Shown in pieces: positions 10,171 through 26,829 of a DNA stretch of 64,000 bases. Position numbers and translations under genes: made by a program. Numbering within the stretch: the first letter of the stretch is position 1; each line of letters opens with the position of its first letter. The DNA comes from Peptococcaceae bacterium CEB3. GTDB taxonomy: Bacteria; Bacillota; Desulfitobacteriia; Desulfitobacteriales; Desulfitobacteriaceae. The notes beneath the pieces were generated by a model, which was not told the DNA's origin, made no database searches, and was given only the letters and a program-made list of their open reading frames with translations. The stretch is from positions 124,001 to 188,000 of the forward strand of contig LDXJ01000061.1 in the NCBI GenBank assembly GCA_001029295.1, read 5' to 3'.

Positions 10171-10883
10171 GCGAGATCGCCCTGGCGTTAAGCAACCTTG
10201 AAACATATTACGGCAAAATCCACGCTCTTAAAGGAATCAGTCTTGAAGTCCCTCAGGGCAAAATTGTTACCCTGCTCGGTTCGAATGGGGCCGGCAAGAG
10301 CACAACCCTCAAGACAATCTCCGGTTTGGTTCAGGCCGCCTCCGGCACCGTGGAGTTTTACGGCAGGAATATTACTAAAGAAAAGGCCCACAATATTGTC
10401 GCCATGGGGTTAATCCACGTGCCCGAAGGGCGCCGCATTTTTAAAGATTTAACCGTTAGGGAAAATGTTGAACTGGGCGGGTTCACCCTGAAAGACGAGA
10501 AATTGCGCAGAAAGCGCGTTGAACATGTCTTTGAGATTTTTCCCCGTTTGCGGGAGCGGCAGAAGCAAAGCGGAGGAACCCTTTCCGGGGGAGAACAACA
10601 GATGCTGGCCATCGGGCGGGCCATGATGACGGAACCGAAGGTTTTGCTTCTCGATGAGCCTTCCATGGGGCTGGCGCCGCTCATCGTCCAGGAAATCATG
10701 AGGATTATCCAGAAGTTAAACAGTGAAGGGACAACGGTGCTGCTGGTCGAACAGAATGCCAAGATCGCCCTGAAGCTGGCCGCTTACGGCTATGTTCTGG
10801 AAACCGGACAGATCGTGATGGACGGAGACAGCGCTCGTCTGCGCCAGGATGAACGCATTGTCAAAGCTTACCTCGGGGGTTGA
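10167..10883 (+). CDS. livF: Liv-type ABC transporter ATP-binding protein
   Basis: Second ATPase, 238 residues. Walker A GSNGAGKST, the LivF-typical HVPEGRRIFKDLTVRENVELG segment, signature LSGGEQQMLAIGRAMM and Walker B LLLDEPSMGLAPLI are all present. The ATGA overlap with livG indicates translational coupling. It completes the livKHMGF set. Confidence 0.94.
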   Translation: MSEIALALSNLETYYGKIHALKGISLEVPQGKIVTLLGSNGAGKSTTLKTISGLVQAASGTVEFYGRNITKEKAHNIVAMGLIHVPEGRRIFKDLTVRENVELGGFTLKDEKLRRKRVEHVFEIFPRLRERQKQSGGTLSGGEQQMLAIGRAMMTEPKVLLLDEPSMGLAPLIVQEIMRIIQKLNSEGTTVLLVEQNAKIALKLAAYGYVLETGQIVMDGDSARLRQDERIVKAYLGG

Positions 10884-10951
10884 GCGAGACAAAACCGGAA
10901 GCGAACGCGTCCGAGCGGAAAGCTTCAAAATATAACAGGACTTAGGGAAGA

Positions 10952-11719
10952 GTGGAGCAGATGGAATTTACAACAATCCACAGAAACACCACCCCGGTTA
11001 TGATCGTGGAGCAATTTCTTAAGAGCTTGGAGTCGGGTCAGCTGGTTCCGGGGCAAAAGCTGCCGCCGGAAAGGGAACTGGCCAGGATGTTCGGGGTGGG
11101 CCGCTCCTCAGTCAGAGAAGCCATCGGCATTCTCGTGGTCATGGGGTACTTGGAAGTGCTCCAGGGAAAAGGCACTTTTATCCGGCGTTCTTCGCCCAGT
11201 ATAGACTATAAATCCATTCCTTTGGAGAACCTGATCAGCCTGCTTCCGCTCTTCGACCTGATCGAAGCCCGAGAAATCCTGGAATTAGAGGCTGTCCGGC
11301 TGGCCGCCGAACGGGCGAACGATCAAGACTTGGAAAAAATGCGCCGGGCGATCCGCAGGCTGGAAGAGAGCGACGGGAACACCGAAAAATTCTATACAGC
11401 CGACGCGGAATTTCATGCCGCCATTGTGGACGCGACTGATAATTCCATGATCTGCCACATCCTCAAATCACTGGTCAGGCAAATTCACCATTTTAACGTC
11501 AAGTTCATGTTTACGTCGGAAGAAGCCAAGCAGCAGACGATCACCACAGCCAAGACAATCACCTCCTTCATCGCCCAAGGAGAAGGTGAAAAGGCACAAG
11601 ACTGGATGTATCGGCACCTCAATGAGGTGGACGGCTCCCTGAAAGACATAGTGGCCGAACGCAAGAAGCGGGGGGAACGGCTCAGCCTTTCCGTCTGGAC
11701 CGAAGACATTAATAGCTGA
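10952..11719 (+). CDS. FadR/GntR-family transcriptional regulator
   Basis: A 255-residue DNA-binding protein. The N-terminal winged helix shows LPPERELARMFGVGRSSVREAIGILVVMGYLEVLQGKGTF, the GntR/FadR signature, at about residues 33-75. The C-terminal FCD ligand domain has the helical EAREILELEAVRLAAERA start and a late AEFHAAIVDATDN segment with the conserved metal/ligand-binding D and H. It lies 68 bases after livF in the same orientation, so it probably controls the liv operon in response to a small acid or amino acid. The start is GTG 10952 or ATG 10961. Confidence 0.88.
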   Translation: MEQMEFTTIHRNTTPVMIVEQFLKSLESGQLVPGQKLPPERELARMFGVGRSSVREAIGILVVMGYLEVLQGKGTFIRRSSPSIDYKSIPLENLISLLPLFDLIEAREILELEAVRLAAERANDQDLEKMRRAIRRLEESDGNTEKFYTADAEFHAAIVDATDNSMICHILKSLVRQIHHFNVKFMFTSEEAKQQTITTAKTITSFIAQGEGEKAQDWMYRHLNEVDGSLKDIVAERKKRGERLSLSVWTEDINS

Positions 11720-12493: not shown

Positions 12494-12765
12494 TCACCGA
12501 GGAGAGTGCTGCTCAGAGTAAATTGCTTGGTTAATCCAAGAACGCAGAAGGGTTTGATAGGGAATATCCTTCCTTGCGGCGATATCCTTGACTGCGCGAA
12601 TTTGATCTTCGCGGAGCCTGAGGCTGACCATTTTTAGACGTTTTTTCGCCCGGTTCTTTATATCTTCTGTCAGTTCAGGACTAGGTTCTAAAACTTCACT
12701 TTCCAGTTCATCCAAGACGTCAGCGGCACTGTGGATATCCCAATAAGCGGCTTCATCCCTTCGTC
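12494..12765 (-). pseudogene. CopG/BrnA-type antitoxin, 5' end lost
   Basis: The frame encodes EAAYWDIHSAADVLDELE, then a ribbon-helix-helix-like LKMVSLRLREDQIRAVKDIAARKDIPYQTLLRSWI, the usual form of CopG/BrnA-family antitoxins. These normally begin with a short leader just before the acidic segment; here no start codon or ribosome binding site is present. The sequence upstream in the same frame is antisense-like filler over a macro-domain fragment. No partner toxin gene lies beside it. It is best read as a truncated remnant joined to foreign DNA near 12756-12765. Confidence 0.6.
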
Positions 12766-12932
12766 GAAAAAGCCAATCCGGGCGTGATTGCCGCCTCGCC
12801 CGTCGCAATCGGCCCGAATTTATCACAGGCGACTTGCAGTTCACGTACTCCCGTCGCTTTGAATATAGCTCCGCAAACGCCGCCCATAGCGAATTCGGTA
12901 TTCGCGGCGTTGACGATAGCGTCAACTTTCAT
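12753..12932 (-). pseudogene. Macro-domain (ADP-ribose-binding) protein, N-terminal fragment
   Basis: From ATG 12932 the minus strand encodes VDAIVNAANTEFAMGG, VCGAIFKATGVREL and GPIATGEAAITPG, the first half of a macro domain including the ADP-ribose-binding NAAN loop. The glycine run is one residue shorter than the usual GGG. The reading frame stops after 59 codons, where the sequence passes into the antitoxin fragment in another frame, so the second half of the domain is missing. The adjacent end of the BREX island suggests this is a scar of insertion or deletion. Confidence 0.7.
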
Positions 12933-12983
12933 CTTCGTTAGGTCGTTAGACTATGGTAACTCTAAAGGCATAATGTCGCCACG

Positions 12984-13184
12984 TTACTCAAACAATGTAC
13001 AGCCTTGCGATTTGAAGTCCTCTATCTTCGCCAACAAATCCTCAACCGATATGTCAAGGTGAGCGGCAAGGCACTTTATGCAAAAATACTTTGTAATCTT
13101 TCTGCCGTGGAACTTCATGTTAAGCCCGACCGTGTTTTTGTCAAGTTGGCTTTCGCACAGGCAACATTTAATAGGTTTCTCCAC
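12984..13184 (-). CDS. Small zinc-binding protein coupled to brxL
   Basis: A protein of 66-69 residues with two cysteine pairs (CCLCESQL near residue 10 and FCIKCLAAHL near residue 38), probably one zinc ribbon, followed by an amphipathic helix (ISVEDLLAKIEDF) and a QGCTLFE end. An AGGTGG site lies five bases before the GTG at 13184, whose G is the last base of the brxL TAG stop; an upstream GTG at 13193 is the alternative. This termination-reinitiation junction suggests it is made together with the BREX proteins. I do not know a defined function; a regulatory or adaptor role is only an inference. Confidence 0.65.
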   Translation of the reverse strand: MEKPIKCCLCESQLDKNTVGLNMKFHGRKITKYFCIKCLAAHLDISVEDLLAKIEDFKSQGCTLFE

Positions 13185-14689
13185 TAATCCCACCTCACTG
13201 TGTATGTCGAAAAGCCAAGATTGCCGTCCGGAAACATACCCGGATTAACAAATCTCATCTGTTTCAATACCGTTTCCTGCATACTCTTAGCGGGTGTCAA
13301 GCAGTACTTATCGAACTCTTGCTTAAATTTGGTAGTGTGAATAAGAGTACTGTCAGCGTGCGGGAAGAACAGTTTCAAATACGCAGTGCAGAGACGGAAC
13401 ACCGCCTCTTTTTCACGCCCAGACGTGTCCCCGGTTGCAGCTTTAACATCAATTAGCTCCTCGACCATTCCGCGATACTTCATAGTTTCGGACGTAGCTC
13501 TGAGCAGATGCATAATCTCAGTGAAGTATTCGGAGTTCAATGCCCAGTCGTTAATAAACATTCTCGGTGACAACGCGGGGACAAATTGTCCGGGGACAAA
13601 ACCGTGTATCCTCTGCAACAAAGCACTATCACGGAAGATTGGGTTAATGTCGCCAATCATATCTTTATCGCTGTCCATATTCTCATAAGCGATGTTGCCA
13701 AGGAAGACAATGCCAGCCTCACCGTCTATACGTGTGCCGCCAACGGTTACATAACCGTCCTCCATATAGCCTTTCAGTATGCCAGCCATTTCTTTATCAT
13801 TGGCGAACTCAACGGACTTAATTTCGTCAACAGCGATGAAATCATTGCAGGTTACCAGTCCTTTGGCTCTCGCACCGGGGCGGCGGTCGATAAACAGCAT
13901 AGTACGACTTACTTGACCACCTGTTAGAAGCCACCCGTATTTACTGATTTTGCCAAACAGATACGACTTACCCGTTTGCTGCGGTGCAAGTTCGATAAGG
14001 TTAATGCGTGGCTGTATGAACGGAAGTAAGCGGGTCAGCATCGTATGCTTCGCTTTCCAAATATCGCGTTCAATCCAGCCTTTACGGGCAAAGCCGTCCG
14101 GGTTATAGTCGATTGCTCCGAGCACAATACCCATCCACTCTTCGACTTCAAAATGGCTTCTTGCATCGCGGAAATCGTCGAGGCTTACTTTATATGGACA
14201 GAAATTTTTGAAGTCGAGCAAGGTAAAACGACCGTTTTTCTTACCACCCTCCGGAGGCATATAGCCTAGCTTAATTAACCCCCATCCACCGGCTTCACCG
14301 ATAAGCTCGTCTTTAATTCTGTTCCACACATAGTCCTCTATTATGGTGTGGGAATGCGTAAAGCCGAGCGATGGTATTTCAAAGCTGTAATAGTTCGAGT
14401 TGGAATTAAAAGACACATTGACCTTGGCGAGAAACGGGCGAGTTTCTCCGTTTGTCCGCGCTTCATCTTCAAGTCTCTCTTTTTCAGTGCGCGGCGGTAT
14501 TATCGTTGCAACATACTCGCTGAGAACGTCGATGTTATCCACCGCTCCGTCAGAACCGGTTCTGCGTTTCAGAATCCAGTCACGGAGGAAAGCCTCGATT
14601 TTTGCCGCTTTGAACATTGACATCACAGAAGGGTCTTTGAAAACCGTGGTGGAGGGGAAATACTCCCTCAGTCTATTAACATCATACAT
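13184..14689 (-). CDS. brxL: BREX system Lon-related ATPase BrxL (type 4 form)
   Basis: Last core gene of the BREX phage-defence locus. It has 501 residues. A P-loop reads APQQTGKSYLFGKIS near residues 235-248, and a Walker B-like segment NDFIAVDEIKSV lies about 50 residues later, followed by a RRPG...DEI...GD block. This is the AAA+ core of BrxL, which forms DNA-binding rings. The S16 Lon protease domain found at the C-terminus of longer type 1 BrxL proteins is not visible. It starts 14 bases after the pglZ stop and ends overlapping the small zinc-binding gene. Confidence 0.82.
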   Translation of the reverse strand: MYDVNRLREYFPSTTVFKDPSVMSMFKAAKIEAFLRDWILKRRTGSDGAVDNIDVLSEYVATIIPPRTEKERLEDEARTNGETRPFLAKVNVSFNSNSNYYSFEIPSLGFTHSHTIIEDYVWNRIKDELIGEAGGWGLIKLGYMPPEGGKKNGRFTLLDFKNFCPYKVSLDDFRDARSHFEVEEWMGIVLGAIDYNPDGFARKGWIERDIWKAKHTMLTRLLPFIQPRINLIELAPQQTGKSYLFGKISKYGWLLTGGQVSRTMLFIDRRPGARAKGLVTCNDFIAVDEIKSVEFANDKEMAGILKGYMEDGYVTVGGTRIDGEAGIVFLGNIAYENMDSDKDMIGDINPIFRDSALLQRIHGFVPGQFVPALSPRMFINDWALNSEYFTEIMHLLRATSETMKYRGMVEELIDVKAATGDTSGREKEAVFRLCTAYLKLFFPHADSTLIHTTKFKQEFDKYCLTPAKSMQETVLKQMRFVNPGMFPDGNLGFSTYTVRWD

Positions 14690-14703
14690 TTATGTCGCCC
14701 TCC

Positions 14704-16773
14704 TCAAATAAGACCTTCGAACTCGTCGACGACTTCGGCGGTAGTCTTTTTACCGAGTTGTTTTGGCACGGCGGTCACAGTATTGCGGGTGAATACAACC
14801 ACAGGAACGAGCCGTTCCTCAAGCGTTGCACCACCGTGCAACTCATACAGCTTGCCTCCCATTTTCGGTAACCGATTATAGCCACGCACAATCCAGTACG
14901 TTTCTTTTCTGTCGGGAAAGTATTCACTCTCAAATTCCGGTGGTCGTGTAGCTCCTTGTGGGGCAAGGGAATAGCGCCAATCATTTGGCTGACCGTTCCG
15001 ACTCGTATCCCAAGGTAGCGTTGTTCCCTTGTTTTCATTACGAGCAATTACCGCAAGGCGAGTAGCTCCGTGATCAGCTGTCACGACAACTCGGGTAAAA
15101 CGAGTAAGACCATCAGCGATACGATTCATAATCTCAGTTTCAAACACGCGTAGCGTTTCCGCAAAATTACGCTCCGGTGTGCAAACTTCGTGTTTTGCTG
15201 CTCCGTTGTGAACGATGTTATCGACACTCTTTATTTCAGGCAGTGTCCGTGCTTCATCCCATTTTATCGGGTTAAAAACGGTTTCAGTAGGCAGTTTGGC
15301 GGTTACGATAGCTTGTGATTCTATGTTCATAGCACGCCGCTTTGCCAGAGCAAGCAAAAGCGGCATATACTCCGCACCCATCGCATCTACTACGATTAAC
15401 GCAACATCAGATTGCGTCTGCAACTCGCCCATTAATGCATCACGCGTAGGATATACTTTGGGAACGACAAGGTCGTAAGCCCGTTTGACAAAATTGTCAG
15501 TAATGCTGTTTGAAATCTTAAACGTGCGGTATTCTTTGAAGTACGCCGTTGTTGCTTCATCGTCATAGTCAAAGACGCTAGAAGAATAATCTGCGAGCGT
15601 CGGAAAAAGTTCTCCGTACTGCTTTGGTAGACCATATGTTAAGTCTTCCGTAGAGGCTCGGCGCACTATTTCAATGCGTTCTGCGTTTGTACCGCAGTTA
15701 AGGAATTGCAAGGCATCTTTGTTGTCCTTCGTTTGTCCGATAAATTCTACAATGAACGATTCATAATTTGAACCGATGGCTTTGAGTGCTTCCGCGCGTT
15801 CCAAGACGTACTTTTTCGCATTCATATCTGAAAGCACCGTTATTGCGGTGTCTACGACATACTTCCATAATAAGTTGTCGTGGGTAACCTCACCTGATAT
15901 TGTTATTCCGATATACGAATCGCCCGGTAGCCGTCTCCGTAACGACCATATATGCGCCGACCATAAGCTGTCTGCTGGCAGTTCAAGCAGACGTTTCAGT
16001 GCAAGACGTGTATTGATATTGTGCGAGCCGAAAATGTTCTCAAGATAAATTTCCGCGCCTTGTCCGCTCTCAGATGACTTGGAAAGCAATAGCTCCAAAG
16101 CGCTATTTTCCAAATCGGCATCTATGCCGTAACGCCGTGCCGCAACCTCACGGGTATTAAGCACAAACGGAACCGCATTACCTATACCCGCTTGTTCACT
16201 AGTTAAACCCGTTAGAATAAGCGTGTAGTTTCCGGACGGTTCAAATTGATTTATCTGACCGAGTAATTTTTTGTAACCAACGATGCCGCCTGTTTTCACC
16301 CATTTATCTGAATATGCCTGAACATAGAGCGGAGTGAGTTCCTCTTCGATTCCCTCTATGGTTACGACACTACGAGACTCCGCATAACGTGGGGCAAAGT
16401 CTAATTTGCTGTGAACGGACAACAAATAATCTGCATTCAGCGTATTACCGTCAAGCCTATTGCGAAGCTCTGACGTAAACGCTGTTACGCCCTCCGCATT
16501 AAGCAACGCCAAATATGCGTCGAGTCCGGTTACTAAGGCGCGACCATTTAGTGCTTGGATTTTTGCATCGACCACACTCATCAGCACATTCGGCATAGGT
16601 AGCCGCATGTCATTGTCAGAGAGACAATCTGCCACCCTAACAACGGTTGCGCCTTGACTTTTATGATGGTTCAGCAACTGTGCCGCCGTAGTATTGTTCG
16701 GGTATACAATGACACGGGGGGCATTAGGATTGCTGAATGTCACTTGGAAATACCTGTTAAGTGTATATGCCAT
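14704..16773 (-). CDS. pglZ: BREX system phosphatase-fold protein PglZ
   Basis: The signature protein of all BREX systems, 689 residues. The alkaline-phosphatase-superfamily core is visible as ALIVVDAMGAEYMPLL (about residues 458-473) and VVVTADHGATRLAV (about 562-575), with the metal-binding aspartates and histidine retained. The N-terminal 450 residues form the helical region typical of the BREX-4 variant. It directly follows brxC (two bases between) and precedes brxL. Type 4 systems lack the PglX methyltransferase, and none is seen here. Confidence 0.88.
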   Translation of the reverse strand: MAYTLNRYFQVTFSNPNAPRVIVYPNNTTAAQLLNHHKSQGATVVRVADCLSDNDMRLPMPNVLMSVVDAKIQALNGRALVTGLDAYLALLNAEGVTAFTSELRNRLDGNTLNADYLLSVHSKLDFAPRYAESRSVVTIEGIEEELTPLYVQAYSDKWVKTGGIVGYKKLLGQINQFEPSGNYTLILTGLTSEQAGIGNAVPFVLNTREVAARRYGIDADLENSALELLLSKSSESGQGAEIYLENIFGSHNINTRLALKRLLELPADSLWSAHIWSLRRRLPGDSYIGITISGEVTHDNLLWKYVVDTAITVLSDMNAKKYVLERAEALKAIGSNYESFIVEFIGQTKDNKDALQFLNCGTNAERIEIVRRASTEDLTYGLPKQYGELFPTLADYSSSVFDYDDEATTAYFKEYRTFKISNSITDNFVKRAYDLVVPKVYPTRDALMGELQTQSDVALIVVDAMGAEYMPLLLALAKRRAMNIESQAIVTAKLPTETVFNPIKWDEARTLPEIKSVDNIVHNGAAKHEVCTPERNFAETLRVFETEIMNRIADGLTRFTRVVVTADHGATRLAVIARNENKGTTLPWDTSRNGQPNDWRYSLAPQGATRPPEFESEYFPDRKETYWIVRGYNRLPKMGGKLYELHGGATLEERLVPVVVFTRNTVTAVPKQLGKKTTAEVVDEFEGLI

Positions 16774-16775
16774 CG

Positions 16776-19700
16776 TTACCCCTCCAAAAACAGCAATCCC
16801 AGTTCCGGGTTCTCGTCGGCGAGTTGCAGAAGTTTCTGTTTCAGTTCTTCTGGGTTTTTGTCGCGAATTTTCTCCTTGATTTGTGGTGCTATTGTTCCTT
16901 TATACTGGCTCTTAATAAACTCCGAGATGTTGGGGCGAGGCGGCCAGTTATTAGCTTGATTGCCGTGCTTGCTACGCAGGAACTCAAGCAGCGATGCAAG
17001 GCTAATGTCGAATTTTTTATATCGTGCAGGCACAAGATCAGCTAGCAGGGCTTTCTGGCAGTCAAGTATGCTTGCCGCTTTTACCGCTTTCAAAACTTCG
17101 AGCATATCAGCGAGTTTCGTGGCGGCGAACGTTTCGGGGTGTTCGATAGCTTTGAGCAAATCGTCAGTATCCGGATTATTGCCAAAGATATACCTTGCGG
17201 GCATACGATTGTTCATCGCCCATTCCGCAGGCGTTGCGGTTCCGGAAATACGTGTCCACTCACTCTTGGTTTTCATGGCAACAGACTGCTTGGCAAATTC
17301 CTCTATTTTTACGCGAATGTTATCCAAGAATGTGGTCTCATCTAATCCGAATCCGCCGAGCATTGAATTAAGTATGCTAAGCAGGTCGGAATTATCAAGA
17401 ACCACATTATTGAGCCGAGATTTCAGAATCAGCAGCGACTCGGATTTTGCATGGTCAAAGAACAGACGCTTAATCAACTCGAAGCTCTGCTGCAAGGCGA
17501 ATTTAATATCCCGTGCTGAACCGTTCGATTGTATTGCCGACAGGAAGTTTGCCAATATTGGATATACCGACTCAATTAAGTGTTTCGGCAAGTGGTTTGT
17601 CTCGGTGACCGCTGTTTTAAGCGCATCAAATACGCTCCTATATGGTACGAAATCCGTAAAACCGCAGAGCGGCTTCGCAAGCTCGATGACTTCGTATTCG
17701 CAAGACATATCATCGATTTCTCTGCTGATGTCTGCCTGTTTCCACAACCAACCCGCTGTTTCTTGACACCTTTCAAGGATGGAACGGCAATAGCCGTGCG
17801 ATACGTCTCCAATTGAATTCGCCAACGCTGAGAGCGCGGGATTTACCTTATCAACATAGATTTCAAAAGCACATAGAAAGTTCTCCGTTTCGATATAGTC
17901 GGCGATAACATTGACAATGTCGGGGTCGTTTACGATTATTTGGCCGGCTCTGTTAACGGCGTTAACTCTCTCTGCGACTTTGCCTCTGTTGCTGGTCGTA
18001 AACGCCGTGCAGACATCATTCAGAACTGTTTCAATGTCATCAGTTTTGGGATCGTTGGCGGCACGAACATATTCGGGCAGTACCCAAAGCGGAACTCTTG
18101 CCGATATATCTTCCACACGGCTTTGAATTTGGCTGAGTACGCTCTCGACCGTTGCGTCCGCAATCGGAGTAGCTCCGAAAATAACTGGGGCTTTCTCTAT
18201 GAACTTCTTTTCCGCTCTGGAAAGGCGGCAAATCAGTTTTTCCTTTGCGCCGATTTTATTGTTGCCGTCATCTTTAACAACGGTTTCAATAATCTCCGCA
18301 AGGGTATCCACGTCAAGCGGAAGTGTCAGTTGCCCGTTAGTCCACTGATAGTTCTTTTGCAGTGTATCACGCAAACAGTAACCCAAGACAAACGCCGACA
18401 AAGCATTATACCGAAGCCCATACGGGGCGCGTTTGAGTTCAATGTAGACGAGTCGGATTGACTGTTGACCGCCTTTGCCTACCGTGTTTGAAAACTTCTT
18501 CTCAAACAACGCGTGTATCGCCCCGAGCGGGTGGTCGAGGTTTTGCGTGAACCAGTGGGGGTCATCGGTTACGCCGTTCTTTTTCAGAGTACTCACCAAC
18601 TGCCCTATTGGCCCCGACGTGGCGTTAAACTGCATACCCGCTTTGGCATAGGCTTGCAATGAACTGTTGCCGAAGTGCGGGTCTTGGAAACCGAGATGGT
18701 CAACGCTGTACTTCAGCGACTTGCGGACATAGCCGGTTATCAAATCTTTGAACGCACTCCAATGTGTATCGTCTATGACTACCTGGCCGTTTTTATATGA
18801 ATACACCTTTATCCTAGCATCGAGTTTCAGTAGTTCCTTAAACCAGTCCTTTTCCATTTCCTCAAGAGACTTCAGGATTAGCTTATCTTTATCCGGAAGA
18901 TACTGAACATACTGACGAACATAGTCGTTCCACAGATTTTTGTTGTTGTGGCAGAACGACAGCGACGGGAACGTGAACATCAGTATTCGGTGGTCATTGA
19001 GTTGCCGCAAAATGCCGTCTATCTTTTGAGGGATCGAAAGCTGTTCCTCGTGGTCTTTCGCAACGACGAACCACAAGCAAACAGAACCATCGTCTTTGTT
19101 AATCTTTTTGGTATATCTATCGCGCGTAGACTGGTTGATATTATTCAATGTCGTATGGCTGGCATCCGAAGCACGAATGTCAAAACGCCCCGAACTAAAT
19201 TTACGGTAGTTCTTGGTATGTTCCGTGAGTGCACTCTCTACCTTCTCGTGCAACAGGTCATGGAACTTGTCTTGCCACTTTTCGATGTCTTCCGCTTTTA
19301 CGGTTGTAGTAGCAAACAGAGCTATTTTGCCGTTTGTAACCGAGAAGCAGTGTTTGCTTGCCAAGTCGTTTATAATGCCAACAGGGTCGGCAATAGTGCC
19401 GTCGCCCTTAAATGACAGTTCTATGTTCTCCACGGTCGGCTTAAGCCTATCGTGGCCGCCGGGGGCGAGGTTATCAAGTAGGCAGAATAGGAGTACCGCT
19501 TTCAGGATGCGCAGTTCGGGAGCATCTTCCGTTTGATTTTGGAACGCGCGGCCACGTGTCTGCTTGTAAAACGCTCCGATATTGGCAATCTCGCTGTCGA
19601 GACCTAAGTCGTTGCGGTCGATGAAATAATGCCACAGATAGTCTACGGTCAAGAACTGCTTGTTAGCTACTTCCGGTCCTCCGGCACGAATAAAATCTTG

Positions 19701-20921
19701 GAATTCCGTGCCGTCTTCGCCGCCTTTAAGGTACTCGAAAAAGCTACGCTGGTTCGACTTCGCTTGCTCCGACAAATGTTTTAGTAAGAAAGCCGCCATC
19801 GGATGCATCGGCAGAATATCATAGAAACGGTCACGGTCGGGGTCGTCAGTTCCGCTAAACTTGTTGACGAGCGAGGAAACAGGATCCCACAGGTCATCCT
19901 TGGCTTTTTGCCATTCGTCAGCAAGCGCCTTAACATCTACCATTGCGTGTTTGGCAAGACGGAAAGCTGTGTCGTTGGGCATTTGGAGTTTACGGAAATA
20001 GAAGCGGTCGTTTGCTTTCTTTGCGCTGTCCGAGCCTTCAGCTAAGTACGCTTTTATTTCCATATGTGTCACAGGCACGAGGAAAAAGTGGTTCACGCCC
20101 GGCGACTCGGTTACATCCTCAAATGTTTTGAGCTGCTCTTTGTTTGCCTCGATAAACGGGTGGAACTCATCAAAGAGGTACACGATGCGCTGAAGATTGT
20201 TTGCCTCAAGAATAGATTTAATCCAAATGCGGAACATCGGCACATCAAAATCCAAAAATATCCTGTCTTGGTGCAACACGGTTTCGACATCATCAAGCAG
20301 TTTAGGCGGAGAATTGTTGCTGTTCAGTGCGGTGATAAGCTCGTCAACCGTCTTTATATCCGATGTAAGGTAAGCGAGTTTGTTTTGTATAGCGTCACGG
20401 GTTTTGAAGAAGTTACTGCCCTCGCGCTTCAAACGCTCAATAACCGTGTCGAGATTGGACATAGCGGGAACAGCCGAACCGCGTTCGTTCAGAGCGGCAA
20501 TTATGCCTTTTTCCAAACGCACGAGAAGTCCCTCGTTCGGACCTACGCCCGTGGCGTTGAAATCGAACACAACAAGCATACCCTCCGCACGGCGGGCAAA
20601 GAGGTCTTTTTCGAGGCTGTCGCGGTCGGAAAGCCCGTTTGTGACGTGTTCATCGAGCCATTGACGGACACGGGATTCGTCGTCCATAAACAGCTTTTGT
20701 ATGACAAGCGTGGCGTTGGACTTGCCGGTGCCGTAGTTACCGGTTATCCATACCGATTTAGCACCGGAGCCGAGGACGGACAGGAGCGTTTTGCAGATGT
20801 CCTCGAATTCCGTATGCGGGTAGAAATCCAGCCACCTATCGGGCGTCTTGTTAATTTCCTCGCGGGTCATAACCGGACAATAATCGTCCGCAACGGTGAA
20901 AAAGTCGGAGTAGTGTCTCAT
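16776..20921 (-). CDS. brxC: BREX system large P-loop ATPase BrxC
   Basis: A 1381-residue ATPase, the size expected of BrxC/PglY. Walker A is ITGNYGTGKSNAT at residues 59-71, and a Walker B-like RIVYLFDEFHPFIEA lies near residue 245. The middle has the typical FYDILPMHPMAAFLLKHLSEQAKSNQRSFFEYL block of DUF6079-like BREX ATPases, and the C-terminal third is helical. It sits between brxP (three bases upstream) and pglZ. In BREX it is needed for defence, probably as a DNA- or complex-remodelling motor. Confidence 0.88.
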   Translation of the reverse strand: MRHYSDFFTVADDYCPVMTREEINKTPDRWLDFYPHTEFEDICKTLLSVLGSGAKSVWITGNYGTGKSNATLVIQKLFMDDESRVRQWLDEHVTNGLSDRDSLEKDLFARRAEGMLVVFDFNATGVGPNEGLLVRLEKGIIAALNERGSAVPAMSNLDTVIERLKREGSNFFKTRDAIQNKLAYLTSDIKTVDELITALNSNNSPPKLLDDVETVLHQDRIFLDFDVPMFRIWIKSILEANNLQRIVYLFDEFHPFIEANKEQLKTFEDVTESPGVNHFFLVPVTHMEIKAYLAEGSDSAKKANDRFYFRKLQMPNDTAFRLAKHAMVDVKALADEWQKAKDDLWDPVSSLVNKFSGTDDPDRDRFYDILPMHPMAAFLLKHLSEQAKSNQRSFFEYLKGGEDGTEFQDFIRAGGPEVANKQFLTVDYLWHYFIDRNDLGLDSEIANIGAFYKQTRGRAFQNQTEDAPELRILKAVLLFCLLDNLAPGGHDRLKPTVENIELSFKGDGTIADPVGIINDLASKHCFSVTNGKIALFATTTVKAEDIEKWQDKFHDLLHEKVESALTEHTKNYRKFSSGRFDIRASDASHTTLNNINQSTRDRYTKKINKDDGSVCLWFVVAKDHEEQLSIPQKIDGILRQLNDHRILMFTFPSLSFCHNNKNLWNDYVRQYVQYLPDKDKLILKSLEEMEKDWFKELLKLDARIKVYSYKNGQVVIDDTHWSAFKDLITGYVRKSLKYSVDHLGFQDPHFGNSSLQAYAKAGMQFNATSGPIGQLVSTLKKNGVTDDPHWFTQNLDHPLGAIHALFEKKFSNTVGKGGQQSIRLVYIELKRAPYGLRYNALSAFVLGYCLRDTLQKNYQWTNGQLTLPLDVDTLAEIIETVVKDDGNNKIGAKEKLICRLSRAEKKFIEKAPVIFGATPIADATVESVLSQIQSRVEDISARVPLWVLPEYVRAANDPKTDDIETVLNDVCTAFTTSNRGKVAERVNAVNRAGQIIVNDPDIVNVIADYIETENFLCAFEIYVDKVNPALSALANSIGDVSHGYCRSILERCQETAGWLWKQADISREIDDMSCEYEVIELAKPLCGFTDFVPYRSVFDALKTAVTETNHLPKHLIESVYPILANFLSAIQSNGSARDIKFALQQSFELIKRLFFDHAKSESLLILKSRLNNVVLDNSDLLSILNSMLGGFGLDETTFLDNIRVKIEEFAKQSVAMKTKSEWTRISGTATPAEWAMNNRMPARYIFGNNPDTDDLLKAIEHPETFAATKLADMLEVLKAVKAASILDCQKALLADLVPARYKKFDISLASLLEFLRSKHGNQANNWPPRPNISEFIKSQYKGTIAPQIKEKIRDKNPEELKQKLLQLADENPELGLLFLEG

Positions 20922-20924
20922 GTT

Positions 20925-23318
20925 CTATTCCCCCAGTGCTAAGTTTATTATATCTTCCAGTGTGTGTTTTTGCGAGTAAACCTCTAAGCCGTCGTTGCCG
21001 TGGGTAAACGTCGTAGAGATATAATCGGGGTAACGGGTACGCAAGCCCTCGCATTGCTTTTTGAATGTATCCGGTGCGATGCCGAATGCCACTAGCGGCG
21101 AAACAAAGGTAGAATCTGCATCAGCCGTGAGCAATTCACGAACGGTGAAACTTTCGCGCTTGGCAAGGTTGGCGATAAGGTATAATCCGTACAGTATAGT
21201 CAGCGGGTGAACGTCCTTTGCTTTGCGGGTTATACTTTGTACAGAACGCCCTTTCATTACTGGGAGCGTTACTGCACCTTCGCCCCCAAGTGGCGATTTG
21301 CTAAGCATATCCCTTAGAGCATCGCGCCCGTCTTCCTTAGATGTCTTGCTTAATGACGGGAAACTCTGTAAAAGCCGTTCCGCAATATCGTCCAATGTGT
21401 AAGGCTGGTCAAAGTCTATTTCGGAAACAAACCACTTAACCAATTTGGCATTGTTCGCAAGAGCCATCCAAACGAGTTCCCAACCTAAGTTTGAGAGCGA
21501 GCCTTCCTTTTGGAATATCTTTGTAGCGGACAAGAGCTTGTGGGTTTTCTCCTCGACAAGCAGGGCTTGTGCAAACCACGCACTTGCAGAAGGAATCATT
21601 TTCTTCCCGAGTGGATGGGTGTCGTGCCACGGAAAGAAATTCTCACCAAGCTCTACAAGAGCGGAAATCCATCCCTCGCGTAGACCGAATGTGAAATAGG
21701 TGCTAAACCCAATCTTGCTGTTATTGTTGTTGACCTCATAGCGCATAGAATTATACCTCCAACAGTTTGATACCGAAACATCATAGCATTTATGGCATTT
21801 ATTGCATTTTTTGTTGTCTATCCTTAGTTTCCCGTTTCTTACTGAGATTGCGCCATTAATGCAATCAGCTTCACAAGTCCTACAACCAATACACCCCGAT
21901 ACTTTTCTCATAAATGCCCGCAAAAACGTAAGCATATCGGCTTGTTCTTGCACGGAGCGGAAATTAAATGTGGCTATTCCACCGCCTGTATATGGCGCAC
22001 GATAAGAGAATGGAATACCCTCATCAATCGCTTTCGGCAATTTAAGTCGTTCTCCGTTACCGCCACGTTCTTTTACAACTGTTCCGATTGTTTTTATCCA
22101 TTCATAAAACAATTCCTTTTGCAAGTGAGGACTTTGGAAAGTTGTTGTCAGTCCGTTACTTTCCTCGCGTGGTAGCGACAAGGTTTCTTTTAGAACAGCA
22201 CCGCTCCGACGAGCTTGCCAGCCTAAACTCCCAACAAAGTCAGTCTTTTCAGCCGCATTCTTGAAGTTCTTATTGCTTGTTGAGCTAATAATATCACTGT
22301 AGGGCTTGACTGATTGCGGATAAATCTTGTCAACATACCATAAATGCTTTACCGACGACTCCGGACACATTAGGCAACCTACGCGAGTCAAGCCCTTTTT
22401 ATATGCGCAGTTGATTATAAGGTCGTTTGCAAAGATGTACAGCCATAATTCATGCGCCCCCCAGTCGAGAATCGGCATACGATTAAGCTGTGAGGCATTC
22501 TTTGCACCATCGGAGGAATCCTTGTAAAACGAGCGATTGTAACTCTCGTCGCCGCGAACTCCGACAAACGCCATAACCTTTATCGCTGACTTTCGCAATT
22601 TCTTCTTTAAGAACATTAGCGCAGGCGTACTTTTATGAACCGAGCAGCACCACCGTATTGTCCTCGACGGCGGAGCGAATATCCGCCAGTTTTCGAGTGC
22701 GGACGTTTCCGCTTTGGCGGTAACGAACTCGCGTTCAGGGTAAAGGGCTTTTATCTCCTCCACTACCTTATAAGTATCGGGCAGTTCCATATCTGTATCG
22801 CTGAACACCACCGGCACCGACAGCGGCAAGACTCTGTGGCAGATGTCGAGCAAGACTACGGAATCCTTGCCACCAGAAAAAGCGATATATGCGGTATCGC
22901 AACGCTTTATGCTTCCGTCGTACAACTCCTTAGTTCGACGCTTCGCGTCGGCGACAACAATATCCATAATCGGGGCGTTCGCCGCTACCATCGCCTCCAC
23001 GTCAACGGGTTCAAGTTTCATCTTGCCGTCAAAGAACGTTTGTATATTCAGCGGTTTACCGTACTGCGTATTGTTAAGCTGAGCCACCTTGCGCCCGCCG
23101 GGTTCGCCTTTCTCGTCAACGTCCGCTATTAGGTATGTATTCCTCATACCCCACATCAACGGTCGGGTTTCGTGGCGGTTATATTCAAAGTAACGCCCAA
23201 GCCCCGTGAGCGAAAGTTCCGGTGCAAATACGGGGCGAATCTCGCTCGCTACATATTTTCCGGTCTGTGTGGTAAGCAGATAACCGTGTGTTTTTCTATC
23301 AAAGATATATGAGTACAA
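20925..23318 (-). CDS. brxP: BREX type 4 PAPS-reductase-domain protein BrxP
   Basis: This gene defines the type 4 form of BREX and takes the place of a methyltransferase. The 797 residues contain a PP-loop ATP pyrophosphatase motif AFSGGKDSVVLLD (146-158), VVFSDTDMELP and a WCCSVHK/GCLMCPES cysteine set as in PAPS reductases and DndC. Next come a ferredoxin-like segment near residue 480 (GCIGCRTCEADC, then CNKCHKCYDV) and a C-terminal block (IGFSTYFTFGLREGW...) resembling DUF4007. PP-loop and Fe-S chemistry suggests sulphur or nucleotide modification of DNA, but the product is not known to me. It abuts the unknown gene upstream. Confidence 0.87.
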   Translation of the reverse strand: MYSYIFDRKTHGYLLTTQTGKYVASEIRPVFAPELSLTGLGRYFEYNRHETRPLMWGMRNTYLIADVDEKGEPGGRKVAQLNNTQYGKPLNIQTFFDGKMKLEPVDVEAMVAANAPIMDIVVADAKRRTKELYDGSIKRCDTAYIAFSGGKDSVVLLDICHRVLPLSVPVVFSDTDMELPDTYKVVEEIKALYPEREFVTAKAETSALENWRIFAPPSRTIRWCCSVHKSTPALMFLKKKLRKSAIKVMAFVGVRGDESYNRSFYKDSSDGAKNASQLNRMPILDWGAHELWLYIFANDLIINCAYKKGLTRVGCLMCPESSVKHLWYVDKIYPQSVKPYSDIISSTSNKNFKNAAEKTDFVGSLGWQARRSGAVLKETLSLPREESNGLTTTFQSPHLQKELFYEWIKTIGTVVKERGGNGERLKLPKAIDEGIPFSYRAPYTGGGIATFNFRSVQEQADMLTFLRAFMRKVSGCIGCRTCEADCINGAISVRNGKLRIDNKKCNKCHKCYDVSVSNCWRYNSMRYEVNNNNSKIGFSTYFTFGLREGWISALVELGENFFPWHDTHPLGKKMIPSASAWFAQALLVEEKTHKLLSATKIFQKEGSLSNLGWELVWMALANNAKLVKWFVSEIDFDQPYTLDDIAERLLQSFPSLSKTSKEDGRDALRDMLSKSPLGGEGAVTLPVMKGRSVQSITRKAKDVHPLTILYGLYLIANLAKRESFTVRELLTADADSTFVSPLVAFGIAPDTFKKQCEGLRTRYPDYISTTFTHGNDGLEVYSQKHTLEDIINLALGE

Positions 23319-24992
23319 TTAATCTATAACCTCCCCAAAGATATTGTATTTCCACTCTCGGCGAGGCTCTGCTTTATAAAATGTGGCAACAAGCCGTCTA
23401 TAAGTGTCCCAATCGGACAAATTGAATTCTGCCCTAAAATTCACGCCTAATTTAAGTGAAATTGCTGTATGAAGAGCCTCTTGTGACGGTTCAAGCCCGA
23501 CATCGCCAAGCCGTTCCAATATCTCGGCAAGCACATCTGAAAAGTTTTCAGGCAAACCGAGAGCATCGACTGTTTGATAGCAAACGCTATCATTGATTTC
23601 GACACGAATCAACTTATCAGTAGCACAGTTTCTTATTATTTTGCCGAGCAAGTCAGTCGAGAACGCACAAAACTTTGTGTGCAGGTCGTCCTCATTGCAA
23701 GAACCATAGTAATCCTCGGTAATCACGGAGACAATTTTTGCTGCGACTTCCTTGAATGTACCCCACACGTTGCCATTGCTGAGACGCGCCATCCTGTTAC
23801 CGATTTGCGGAGCTTGGACACAACGCACACCACGTTTTTCGATTTGCTCGTAGAAGCGCTCAAAAGCATCTGCGTTTCCGATACATTTCGGATTAACCTT
23901 ATCTTCGTACAGCTTGTAGAGTTCAGCTATTTCGAAGCATCCGTACTCTTCAAGAAACGCATCGGCAAAATCAACGATGTTTTTTCGGGTAGCGGCATCG
24001 GCAACGGTATCAAGCAAAAAGTATATGCCGTCATCTCTGCAGAACATAACCCGCTTCAAAGCCGATTGCATACGCTCGTCAATTTCAATGCCGGAGGCAT
24101 TTGAAAGCAGATTTATATAAGTAGTGTCAAAACGAAAACCCGAAAAATAGTTTCTGTTCAGTGCCTCCAGTAGCGAGTCCGGAACACTTGCCGCAGTTTC
24201 GACCGCGACATTTGCATTAAGCAATTCGGGGTGATTCTCAGTGAGGAATTCTTTCAGCATACGCAAGGAACGGAGATAGCCTCGTGCCGAGCCGGATGGA
24301 TTATTTGTCTGTGTCGGATTGTTAATGAAGTACCGCTCAATCGCATCGTATGCTCTTTGCAAGCCGTCATCATCGGTCAATGCTTCGTCAAGAGTGACAC
24401 CGCGCTCATTATTATAAAGGTAATAAGCATCAGAATAATGCACTGTAACCGTCCCGCTGCTCCATTCGGGATTATGATCTGTGAGCCACGCTCGGAATGC
24501 GTCGCGAATAGGTTGCTGCGCAAACCGTGCGGAATCGTTATCTGTTTTTATCACCGGAGCGTCACCACCTGATTTCGGGACATAAGTAATTATTACATCA
24601 TTTAGGCCTACACCACAGGCTGCACAGACGCGCCCAATCATTCTAACGAACACATCTAAGCCGTAGTTTACCAATATAACTTTGCCGTTCGACAGCGTTT
24701 TGCAGTTAAGACCAGGCATTTCCTCGTCCATAAGCAATGGTCGACCGCTTTTGAATTGGTAATCGGTTAGCAGTTTGGGATTTGTCTTCAAGAATAGCTC
24801 TACAACATCAATAAGCAAGTCAATCCAAGTTTCTCGGATTGGAACATTTGTAAAGCCAATCTTACAGGAAACAGGGTTAGTCCGCTTGCACAGTTCGGGG
24901 TGAGCAAAGTCAACACGCTGCGGCTCGGTACTGATTCCTTTCGGTTTATCAATTGTTGCCGCCGAGTCAACAGCGACCTCTTGCTTGTGCAT
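23319..24992 (-). CDS. Unknown protein, first intact gene of the BREX-4 operon
   Basis: A 557-residue protein that I cannot assign. Its stop is immediately followed by the brxP start, and its own ATG, with GGAG eight bases upstream, is directly preceded by the stop of a lost gene. It thus sits in the middle of a once longer operon. An N-terminal region (TWIDLLIDVVELFLKTNP ... VILVNYGLDVFVRMIGRVCAACGV) resembles a short alpha/beta module seen in uncharacterised restriction-associated proteins. A second region has SARGYLRSLRMLKEFLTEN, and the C-terminus is a mixed helical domain. No nuclease, helicase or methylase motif is seen. It is not part of the canonical four-gene type 4 BREX set. Confidence 0.75.
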   Translation of the reverse strand: MHKQEVAVDSAATIDKPKGISTEPQRVDFAHPELCKRTNPVSCKIGFTNVPIRETWIDLLIDVVELFLKTNPKLLTDYQFKSGRPLLMDEEMPGLNCKTLSNGKVILVNYGLDVFVRMIGRVCAACGVGLNDVIITYVPKSGGDAPVIKTDNDSARFAQQPIRDAFRAWLTDHNPEWSSGTVTVHYSDAYYLYNNERGVTLDEALTDDDGLQRAYDAIERYFINNPTQTNNPSGSARGYLRSLRMLKEFLTENHPELLNANVAVETAASVPDSLLEALNRNYFSGFRFDTTYINLLSNASGIEIDERMQSALKRVMFCRDDGIYFLLDTVADAATRKNIVDFADAFLEEYGCFEIAELYKLYEDKVNPKCIGNADAFERFYEQIEKRGVRCVQAPQIGNRMARLSNGNVWGTFKEVAAKIVSVITEDYYGSCNEDDLHTKFCAFSTDLLGKIIRNCATDKLIRVEINDSVCYQTVDALGLPENFSDVLAEILERLGDVGLEPSQEALHTAISLKLGVNFRAEFNLSDWDTYRRLVATFYKAEPRREWKYNIFGEVID

Positions 24993-25172
24993 CTAGGGTT
25001 CTCCGTTCTCTTCCATATATTGCACATAACGCCTGTAAGCGGCTAAGCCTGCGAAAAATGCGCCGTGGTTCGCACCGCGATTGACCTCACGTAAATTTGG
25101 AGCTTCTTGAAACGTTTTGTTGAGCCTATCAAGCCCGGCTCCGACACGGTGTCCCCGACACGCCGAAAATTG
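24993..25172 (-). pseudogene. C-terminal remnant of a gene upstream of the BREX operon
   Basis: In frame with the TAG at 24993-24995, the minus strand encodes LDRLNKTFQEAPNLREVNRG, then ANHGAFFAGLAAYRRYVQYMEENGEP, a plausible protein C-terminus that is identical in placement to a real upstream operon gene: its TAG touches the ATG of the next gene. Going upstream, the frame is blocked by a stop at 25173-25175 and no start codon is found. The YRRYVQYMEE helix recalls the ends of several restriction-associated proteins. The body of the gene has been lost. Confidence 0.55.
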
Positions 25173-26787: not shown

Positions 26788-26829
26788 GTGCCTAAAACCC
26801 TTATGCCATAGCATTAGGGTTTCAGGCAC
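26788..26829. terminator. Long near-perfect hairpin
   Basis: GTGCCT, AAACCCT and ATGC pair with GCAT, AGGGTTT and AGGCAC across a four-base loop, with only two mismatches. On the minus strand it is followed by TTTT. It could end transcription of the mutase operon about 350 bases upstream, or be a mobile-element end. The rest of 26706-26934 shows nothing else. Confidence 0.45.

What the first reader, a model, noticed from the sequence alone, without database searches (positions are those of the whole stretch)
12984..25172. Type 4 BREX locus extended by two unexplained genes
Seen: brxP, brxC, pglZ and brxL in the order known for BREX type 4, with gaps of 2-14 bases. An extra 557-codon gene abuts brxP, its own ATG touches the stop of a lost upstream gene, and a small zinc-binding protein is coupled behind brxL. 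Known: the core type 4 set is four genes, PglX is absent, and the mechanism of BrxP is poorly understood. Inference: the extra genes are either type 4 accessories or a further defence module sharing the operon.
Basis: partly seen in the sequence, partly recalled or inferred. Interest (0 to 1): 0.75.

Follow-up and report, generated by a model that had tools for sequence, protein, structure and literature searches.

The report
DNA-reading gene of a sulfur-marking defence
The unexplained gene is this genome's version of a modular, probably DNA-reading protein that stands directly before brxP in most of the type 4 BREX phage-defence operons examined, and it may be the part that tells this sulfur-marking system which DNA to mark or attack.

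Summary
The operon is real: X (557 aa)-brxP-brxC-pglZ-brxL-small Zn protein on the minus strand, gaps 0, 3, 2, 14 and a 1-nt overlap. It is a type 4 BREX, a kind published as using DNA phosphorothioation. The Zn protein is ordinary (behind brxL in 59 of 62 loci; a small zinc-finger gene is already published there). X has no Pfam, PADLOC or NCBIfam family, yet is not peculiar to this genome. In 80 brxP loci nearest the window's, X's C-terminal core lies upstream of brxP in 75 and directly before it in 71, usually within 20 nt; in a phylum sample, in 10 of 17 brxP genomes. It was almost never seen away from brxP. The core diverges in step with BrxP (Mantel r 0.88), while the N-terminal part is a shuffled array of DNA-binding-type modules: SeqA-like, integrase SAM-like, HARE-HTH, sigma region 4. 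The window's X carries a SeqA-like module (AlphaFold pLDDT 93; Z 8.2, next unrelated fold 2.2) keeping one of SeqA's two DNA-contacting Asn; outside BREX this module was found fused to GmrSD type IV restriction enzymes. Best reading: X is the DNA reader or specificity subunit of type 4 BREX (inferred). The 'lost upstream gene' is X's own decayed N-terminal module.

The parts
23319..24992 (-). X: 557-aa protein, first gene of the operon; N-terminal DNA-reader-type modules plus conserved tandem winged-helix core
   Evidence: open frame; homologues directly before brxP in 71 of 80 loci
24570..24923 (-). SeqA-like module of X (residues 24-141), Asn109 at the place of SeqA Asn150
   Evidence: AlphaFold pLDDT 93; SeqA Z 8.2/7.9/7.7, next 2.2; profile vs SeqA beats 100 of 100 shuffles
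24216..24527 (-). SAM-like (tyrosine-integrase core-binding type) module of X (residues 156-259)
   Evidence: shared with L133/L051 X proteins (BLASTP 7e-23); census; Phage_int_SAM_1 hits in 2 family members
23367..24176 (-). C-terminal core of X (residues 273-542): tandem winged helices, acidic, the part common to the family
   Evidence: AlphaFold pLDDT mostly above 88; winged-helix fold matches; family HMMs
24999..25163 (-). in-frame remnant of a further N-terminal module of X, cut off by TAG 24993-24995
   Evidence: 42% identity over 55 aa to L133 X, E 6.5e-6; sequence
20925..23318 (-). brxP: PAPS-reductase / Fe-S protein with C-terminal DUF4007-like part (TTG start, GGGGAGG ribosome site)
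   Evidence: PADLOC BrxP 6e-210; Pfam PAPS_reduct 1e-27; start site
16776..20921 (-). brxC/pglY: AAA+ ATPase, 1381 aa
   Evidence: PADLOC BrxC 1.9e-270
14704..16773 (-). pglZ, type 4
   Evidence: NCBIfam BREX_PglZ_4 171.7 bits, cut-off 140
13184..14689 (-). brxL (short form, N-terminal and ATPase domains, no Lon domain)
   Evidence: PADLOC BrxL 1.9e-158; Pfam BrxL_N and BrxL_ATPase
12984..13184 (-). small protein (66 aa) with CxxC...CxxC, overlapping the brxL stop by 1 nt; the usual small zinc-finger partner of type 4 BREX
   Evidence: homologue within 150 nt of brxL in 59 of 62 loci; described for type 4 BREX in PMC12839542

Best explanation
X is the DNA-reading (site- or modification-recognition) subunit of a phosphorothioate-based type 4 BREX system. 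Its conserved acidic tandem winged-helix core is held by the BREX machinery (BrxP, BrxC or both), and its exchangeable N-terminal array of DNA-binding-type modules (in the window a SeqA-like plus a SAM-like module) reads a sequence and/or the modified or hemi-modified state of DNA, directing BrxP to mark self DNA or BrxC/PglZ/BrxL to act on foreign DNA. It would do for type 4 what the target-recognition domain of PglX does in other BREX types. Shown here: gene order, recurrence, confinement to brxP, co-divergence of core and BrxP, module shuffling, predicted SeqA-like fold. Inferred: DNA binding, docking on BREX proteins, effect on marking or restriction.
For: Un-iterated HMMs hit an ORF before brxP in 75 of 80 loci, 71 directly, and no other kind of ORF there. 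In 398 phylum genomes X-type cores lie beside brxP except for two weak distant hits. Core identity follows BrxP identity (Mantel r 0.88, 0 of 2000 permutations), while at 60-69% BrxP identity only 29 of 60 pairs keep a recognisable N-terminal part. Modules found in 79 upstream proteins: SeqA-like in 31, SAM-like in at least 32, HARE-HTH in 6, sigma-r4 in 6, with up to 5 copies (Pfam support). SeqA-like fold with Asn at the SeqA Asn150 place in 29 of 42 modules; SeqA contacts GATC through Arg116-118, Asn150 and Asn152 (PMC6225831). The same module is fused to GmrSD type IV restriction enzymes elsewhere. Type 4 BREX has no methyltransferase and is described as a phosphorothioation system (PMC12839542, PMC11931770).
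Against: No binding or marking was measured. About 40% of phylum brxP genomes lack X (7 of 17), so it is not indispensable, unless DUF4007/BrxA-like parts suffice there. The core is acidic (pI about 5) and the window's N-terminal part is acidic too (pI 5.2), not typical of DNA binding. SeqA likeness is by fold and a weak profile match, not Pfam; the window keeps Asn109 but has Gly111 where SeqA has Asn152. Window X has lost a module. Some members have almost no N-terminal part (L074, L078, L120).
Confidence: 0.5

Rival explanations
1. X is a transcription regulator of the operon: first gene, helix-turn-helix core, acting like the BrxR regulator of type 1 BREX or a dedicated sigma factor.
For: Six of the 79 upstream proteins carry sigma-70 region 4 modules, and in two phylum loci (L052, L062) the slot holds a full sigma-70-like protein; two other family-slot proteins match MzaA. 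Winged helices are common in regulators.
Against: Usually 400-1400 aa with many exchangeable modules; core acidic and tracking BrxP; no WYL domain found; the gene is coupled to brxP with about zero gap, and the promoter scan is at chance level.
Confidence: 0.22
2. X is a trigger that senses phage DNA modifications (like type IV restriction readers) and only switches on the restriction side, with no part in marking self DNA.
For: SeqA-like module shared with GmrSD type IV restriction enzymes; HARE-HTH predicted to read modified bases in Dnd-linked systems (PMC10853773); rapid module exchange suits an arms race.
Against: SeqA reads hemimethylated self DNA, not phage modifications; no nuclease domain in X; position before brxP (the marking enzyme) rather than before pglZ or brxL.
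Confidence: 0.16
3. In this genome X is a decaying, no longer working remnant, and the locus runs as a four-gene BREX.
For: An N-terminal module has been cut off by a stop and is degraded upstream; X reading frames are also broken in L063 and L064; both flanks of the operon are decayed.
Against: 557 codons stay open with a usable ribosome site and the core is well conserved; SeqA-like and SAM-like modules are intact.
Confidence: 0.1

Closest known systems
BREX type 4 (brxP-brxC-pglZ-brxL)
   Same: All four core genes in order, type 4 PglZ, PAPS-reductase BrxP with Fe-S cysteines, small zinc-finger gene behind brxL
   Different: Carries X before brxP, not mentioned in the main text of the 2026 BREX survey (PMC12839542; its supplements could not be read); no cysteine desulfurase in the operon, one elsewhere in the genome
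SeqA, C-terminal DNA-binding domain (reader of hemimethylated GATC)
   Same: Predicted fold of X residues 22-142 (Z 8.2, 93 residues, rmsd 2.6), conserved Asn at the Asn150 place
   Different: No Pfam SeqA or SeqA_N match, low identity (6%), different protein context, Asn152 place is Ser/Asn/Gly
GmrSD (DUF262/DUF1524) type IV restriction enzymes with the same module behind them
   Same: Share the SeqA-like module (L165-L167)
   Different: X has no GmrSD nuclease domains
Type I specificity subunit HsdS / PglX target-recognition domain (own knowledge)
   Same: Conserved docking part with exchangeable recognition part
   Different: No sequence relation tested or claimed; X function unproven

Membership tests
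BREX type 4 | PAPS-reductase protein BrxP in place of a methyltransferase | tested here: met
   PADLOC BrxP 6e-210, Pfam PAPS_reduct 1e-27; no methyltransferase gene in the operon
BREX type 4 | BrxC, type 4 PglZ and BrxL in the order brxP-brxC-pglZ-brxL | tested here: met
BREX type 4 | small zinc-finger partner; cysteine desulfurase (56% of taxa in the survey) | tested here: inconclusive
   Zn protein present; desulfurase not in the operon but a homologue at G000:C37. Neither is strictly defining
BREX type 4 | DNA phosphorothioation and phage defence | not testable with these tools
   needs LC-MS or PT-seq and phage challenge
SeqA family (for the X N-terminal module) | SeqA C-terminal fold | tested here: met
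   predicted model only: Z 8.2/7.9/7.7 to three SeqA entries, next 2.2
SeqA family (for the X N-terminal module) | sequence match to Pfam SeqA (PF03925) or SeqA_N (PF17206) | tested here: not met
   no match up to E 1; the models do find E. coli SeqA
SeqA family (for the X N-terminal module) | DNA-contacting Arg116-Arg118, Asn150, Asn152 | tested here: inconclusive
   Asn150 place conserved in 29 of 42 modules incl. the window; Asn152 place Ser/Asn/Gly; Arg region not clearly aligned
BrxR-type or sigma regulator | WYL domain or full sigma-70 regions | tested here: not met
   no Pfam or NCBIfam match in window X
Nuclease effector | recognisable nuclease domain | tested here: not met
   no family match in Pfam or PADLOC; by fold, only winged helices and SeqA stood out, a fold search that is itself inconclusive for absence

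The most novel reading that the evidence does not exclude
Type 4 BREX has an unrecognised specificity component: a brxP-coupled protein whose shuffled array of SeqA-like, SAM-like, HARE-HTH and sigma-r4 modules reads sequence and modification state, so that phosphorothioate marking and restriction are aimed by an exchangeable reader, with a SeqA-type domain sensing hemi-modified (possibly hemi-phosphorothioated) DNA after replication.
Probability: 0.3. Interest if true: 0.82.

Novelty: new variant of a known kind. Interest (0 to 1): 0.62.

Why it matters
How a BREX system without a methyltransferase chooses the DNA it marks or attacks is open. A co-inherited, modular gene in front of the marking enzyme gives a concrete candidate, and natural module swaps between close relatives make the test direct: swap the array and see whether the phosphorothioate motif moves. 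It would also be a SeqA-type reader in phage defence rather than replication control, and a protein family that current defence-gene databases do not contain.

Tried and rejected
tRNA and Rfam scans of the window found nothing: no sign of a tRNA-type insertion site. Sequence searches of X against phages, plasmids, viral contigs and the PDB found nothing. Relation of X's core to the DUF4007 part of BrxP was tested by profile comparison and not found. Idea that X is a nuclease effector: no nuclease domain found. Idea that X is a chance neighbour: rejected by 71 of 80 loci and by its near-absence elsewhere. Promoter-like and terminator-like sites in the operon are at chance level. Fold search of the whole X model lists mostly single winged helices with Z 7.5-9.4, too general to name a function.

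Full report
WHAT IS THERE. On the minus strand, 24992 to 12984, six genes run head to tail: X (557 aa), brxP, brxC, pglZ, brxL and a 66-aa CxxC protein. The four BREX genes are identified by PADLOC with E-values from 4e-87 to 2e-270, and PglZ passes the NCBIfam cut-off for type 4. Each gene from X to brxL has a usable ribosome-binding site; brxP starts with TTG right behind the X stop, and the last gene best starts at GTG 13184, overlapping the brxL stop by one base. Published work describes type 4 BREX as a DNA-phosphorothioation system in which BrxP replaces the methyltransferase (PMC12839542, PMC11931770). No cysteine desulfurase is in the operon, but a homologue is encoded elsewhere in the genome, as the survey expects for part of the systems.

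THE SMALL GENE IS ORDINARY. A homologue of the 66-aa protein lies within 150 nt of brxL in 59 of 62 assessable loci, with a cysteine desulfurase close by in 39 of 60. It fits the small zinc-finger protein already reported with type 4 BREX and its cysteine desulfurase.

X IS A RECURRENT COMPONENT. X has no match in Pfam, PADLOC, NCBIfam, phages, plasmids or the PDB. Of 101 genomes searched, the window's own included, 5 hold X: beside the window's, three have X directly before brxP, and one (G057) has only the start of X joined to the small zinc gene, with the four core genes gone, as a deletion inside such an operon would leave it. One scan of about 85,000 species genomes with a BrxP alignment returned the 80 loci best matching the window's BrxP. 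HMMs built from the window and its first relatives, not from these 80 (although a few of the same genomes recur among them, e.g. G048 = L068), hit an ORF upstream of brxP in 75 of 80 loci, directly before it in 71, and nothing else in those loci; two of the five misses (L106, L108) have brxP at a contig edge. Of the 71, 61 have a gap of 20 nt or less. Hosts include Bacillota, Desulfovibrio, spirochaetes, planctomycetes, Synergistaceae, Nitrospirae and Alphaproteobacteria. The 80 are biased towards the window's BrxP; in an even sample of 398 phylum genomes, 17 have type 4 brxP (15 above 600 bits plus one broken and one at a contig end) and 10 of these have X beside it. Two of the other seven (L052, L062) have a sigma-70-like protein in that slot instead. 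Two weak hits away from BREX are large sigma-r4-like proteins, one beside a helicase/PLD-like gene.

ANATOMY OF X. The common part is a C-terminal core. AlphaFold models the window's core (residues 272-557) with mostly high confidence as consecutive winged helices; the best structural neighbours are tandem winged-helix proteins. In most relatives the core is about 530 aa, in the window group about 270, and it contains internal repeats. The two groups of core are homologous (hhalign; un-iterated E 6e-6). Pairwise identity of the core follows that of BrxP (Mantel r 0.88, none of 2000 permutations as high), whereas N-terminal parts are exchanged: among pairs with 60-69% identical BrxP only 29 of 60 have recognisably related N-terminal parts. 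Co-divergence is expected of any co-inherited gene and shows shared history, not contact. The N-terminal parts are arrays of recurring modules: SeqA-like in 31 of 79 proteins, SAM-like (integrase core-binding type) in at least 32, HARE-HTH in 6, sigma region 4 in 6, singly or in up to five copies; Pfam confirms HARE-HTH, Sigma70_r4 and Phage_int_SAM in some.

THE WINDOW'S READER MODULE. Residues 22-142 alone fold with pLDDT 93. Three SeqA-DNA domain structures match with Z 8.2, 7.9 and 7.7 over 92-94 residues, the next unrelated entry having 2.2 (Foldseek probability 0.97, E 0.42). A profile of the module aligned to E. coli SeqA scores above all of 100 shuffled SeqA sequences, though the hhalign probability is low (16%). 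SeqA contacts hemimethylated GATC through Arg116-Arg118, Asn150 and Asn152 (PMC6225831); the Asn150 place is Asn in 29 of 42 modules, including Asn109 of the window, and the Asn152 place is Ser or Asn in 32 (the window has Gly111). Pfam's SeqA models do not hit, so X is not filed as a SeqA protein; the claim is likeness of fold. Outside BREX, the module was found fused behind GmrSD type IV restriction enzymes in three of six cases, another setting where modified DNA is read.

THE LOST UPSTREAM GENE. The 55 codons before the TAG that touches X's ATG match a module present in L133, L050 and L121 X proteins. So X was longer and has lost an N-terminal module by a stop and decay.

HOW IT MAY WORK. 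Type 4 BREX has no methyltransferase and hence no methyltransferase target-recognition domain. A brxP-coupled protein with a conserved core and exchangeable DNA-reading modules is a natural candidate for the recognition subunit: the core docks on BrxP/BrxC, the array selects sequence or modification state, and the complex marks or attacks accordingly. Docking, DNA binding and effect on marking are inferred. The acidic core (pI about 5) fits protein docking better than DNA binding, but the window's N-terminal part is acidic too, which speaks against it. Rivals are a transcription regulator (sigma-like members, first position), a sensor of phage modifications only, and a decaying remnant.

NOVELTY. 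The system is known; the component appears in no family library at hand and not in the main text of the 2026 survey, whose supplements, and the 2024 preprint on type 4 BREX, could not be read. Novelty is therefore likely but not certain.

Noticed in passing
L014 (G057:C141:24001-44000) 10381-10964: X N-terminal fragment followed by a frame that joins X's SeqA-like end to the small zinc protein, with brxP-brxC-pglZ-brxL gone: apparent deletion scar of a whole operon.
   Followed up: partly
L165, L166, L167 (G319, G176, G092): The SeqA-like module is fused behind GmrSD (DUF262/DUF1524) type IV restriction enzymes; L163 and L164 carry it in small unknown proteins.
   Followed up: partly
L052 14029-15510 and L062 4528-5973: In two type 4 BREX loci the gene before brxP is a sigma-70-like protein instead of X.
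   Followed up: partly
L048 5298-6014 (G250): A 238-aa protein with a CxxC...CxxCH HNH-like stretch is inserted between X and brxP.
   Followed up: no
window 12494-12980: Behind the zinc gene are decayed pieces: a macro-domain-like fragment (by eye) and a CopG/BrnA-type antitoxin-like ORF (Pfam CopG_antitoxin 7.7e-8).
   Followed up: no
window 26788-26829: A 14-bp near-perfect hairpin (GTGCCTGAAACCCT...AGGGTTTTAGGCAC) in the decayed non-coding stretch between X and the methylmalonyl-CoA-mutase-like genes; no Rfam match.
   Followed up: no
L063 9070-9997 and L064 8000-8500: X reading frames are broken by frameshifts in two relatives (assembly error or switching off).
   Followed up: no
L013 9100-20000 (G074): The brxP/X locus of G074 lies beside a CRISPR-like repeat array and type III CRISPR-like genes (judged by eye from the translations).
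   Followed up: no
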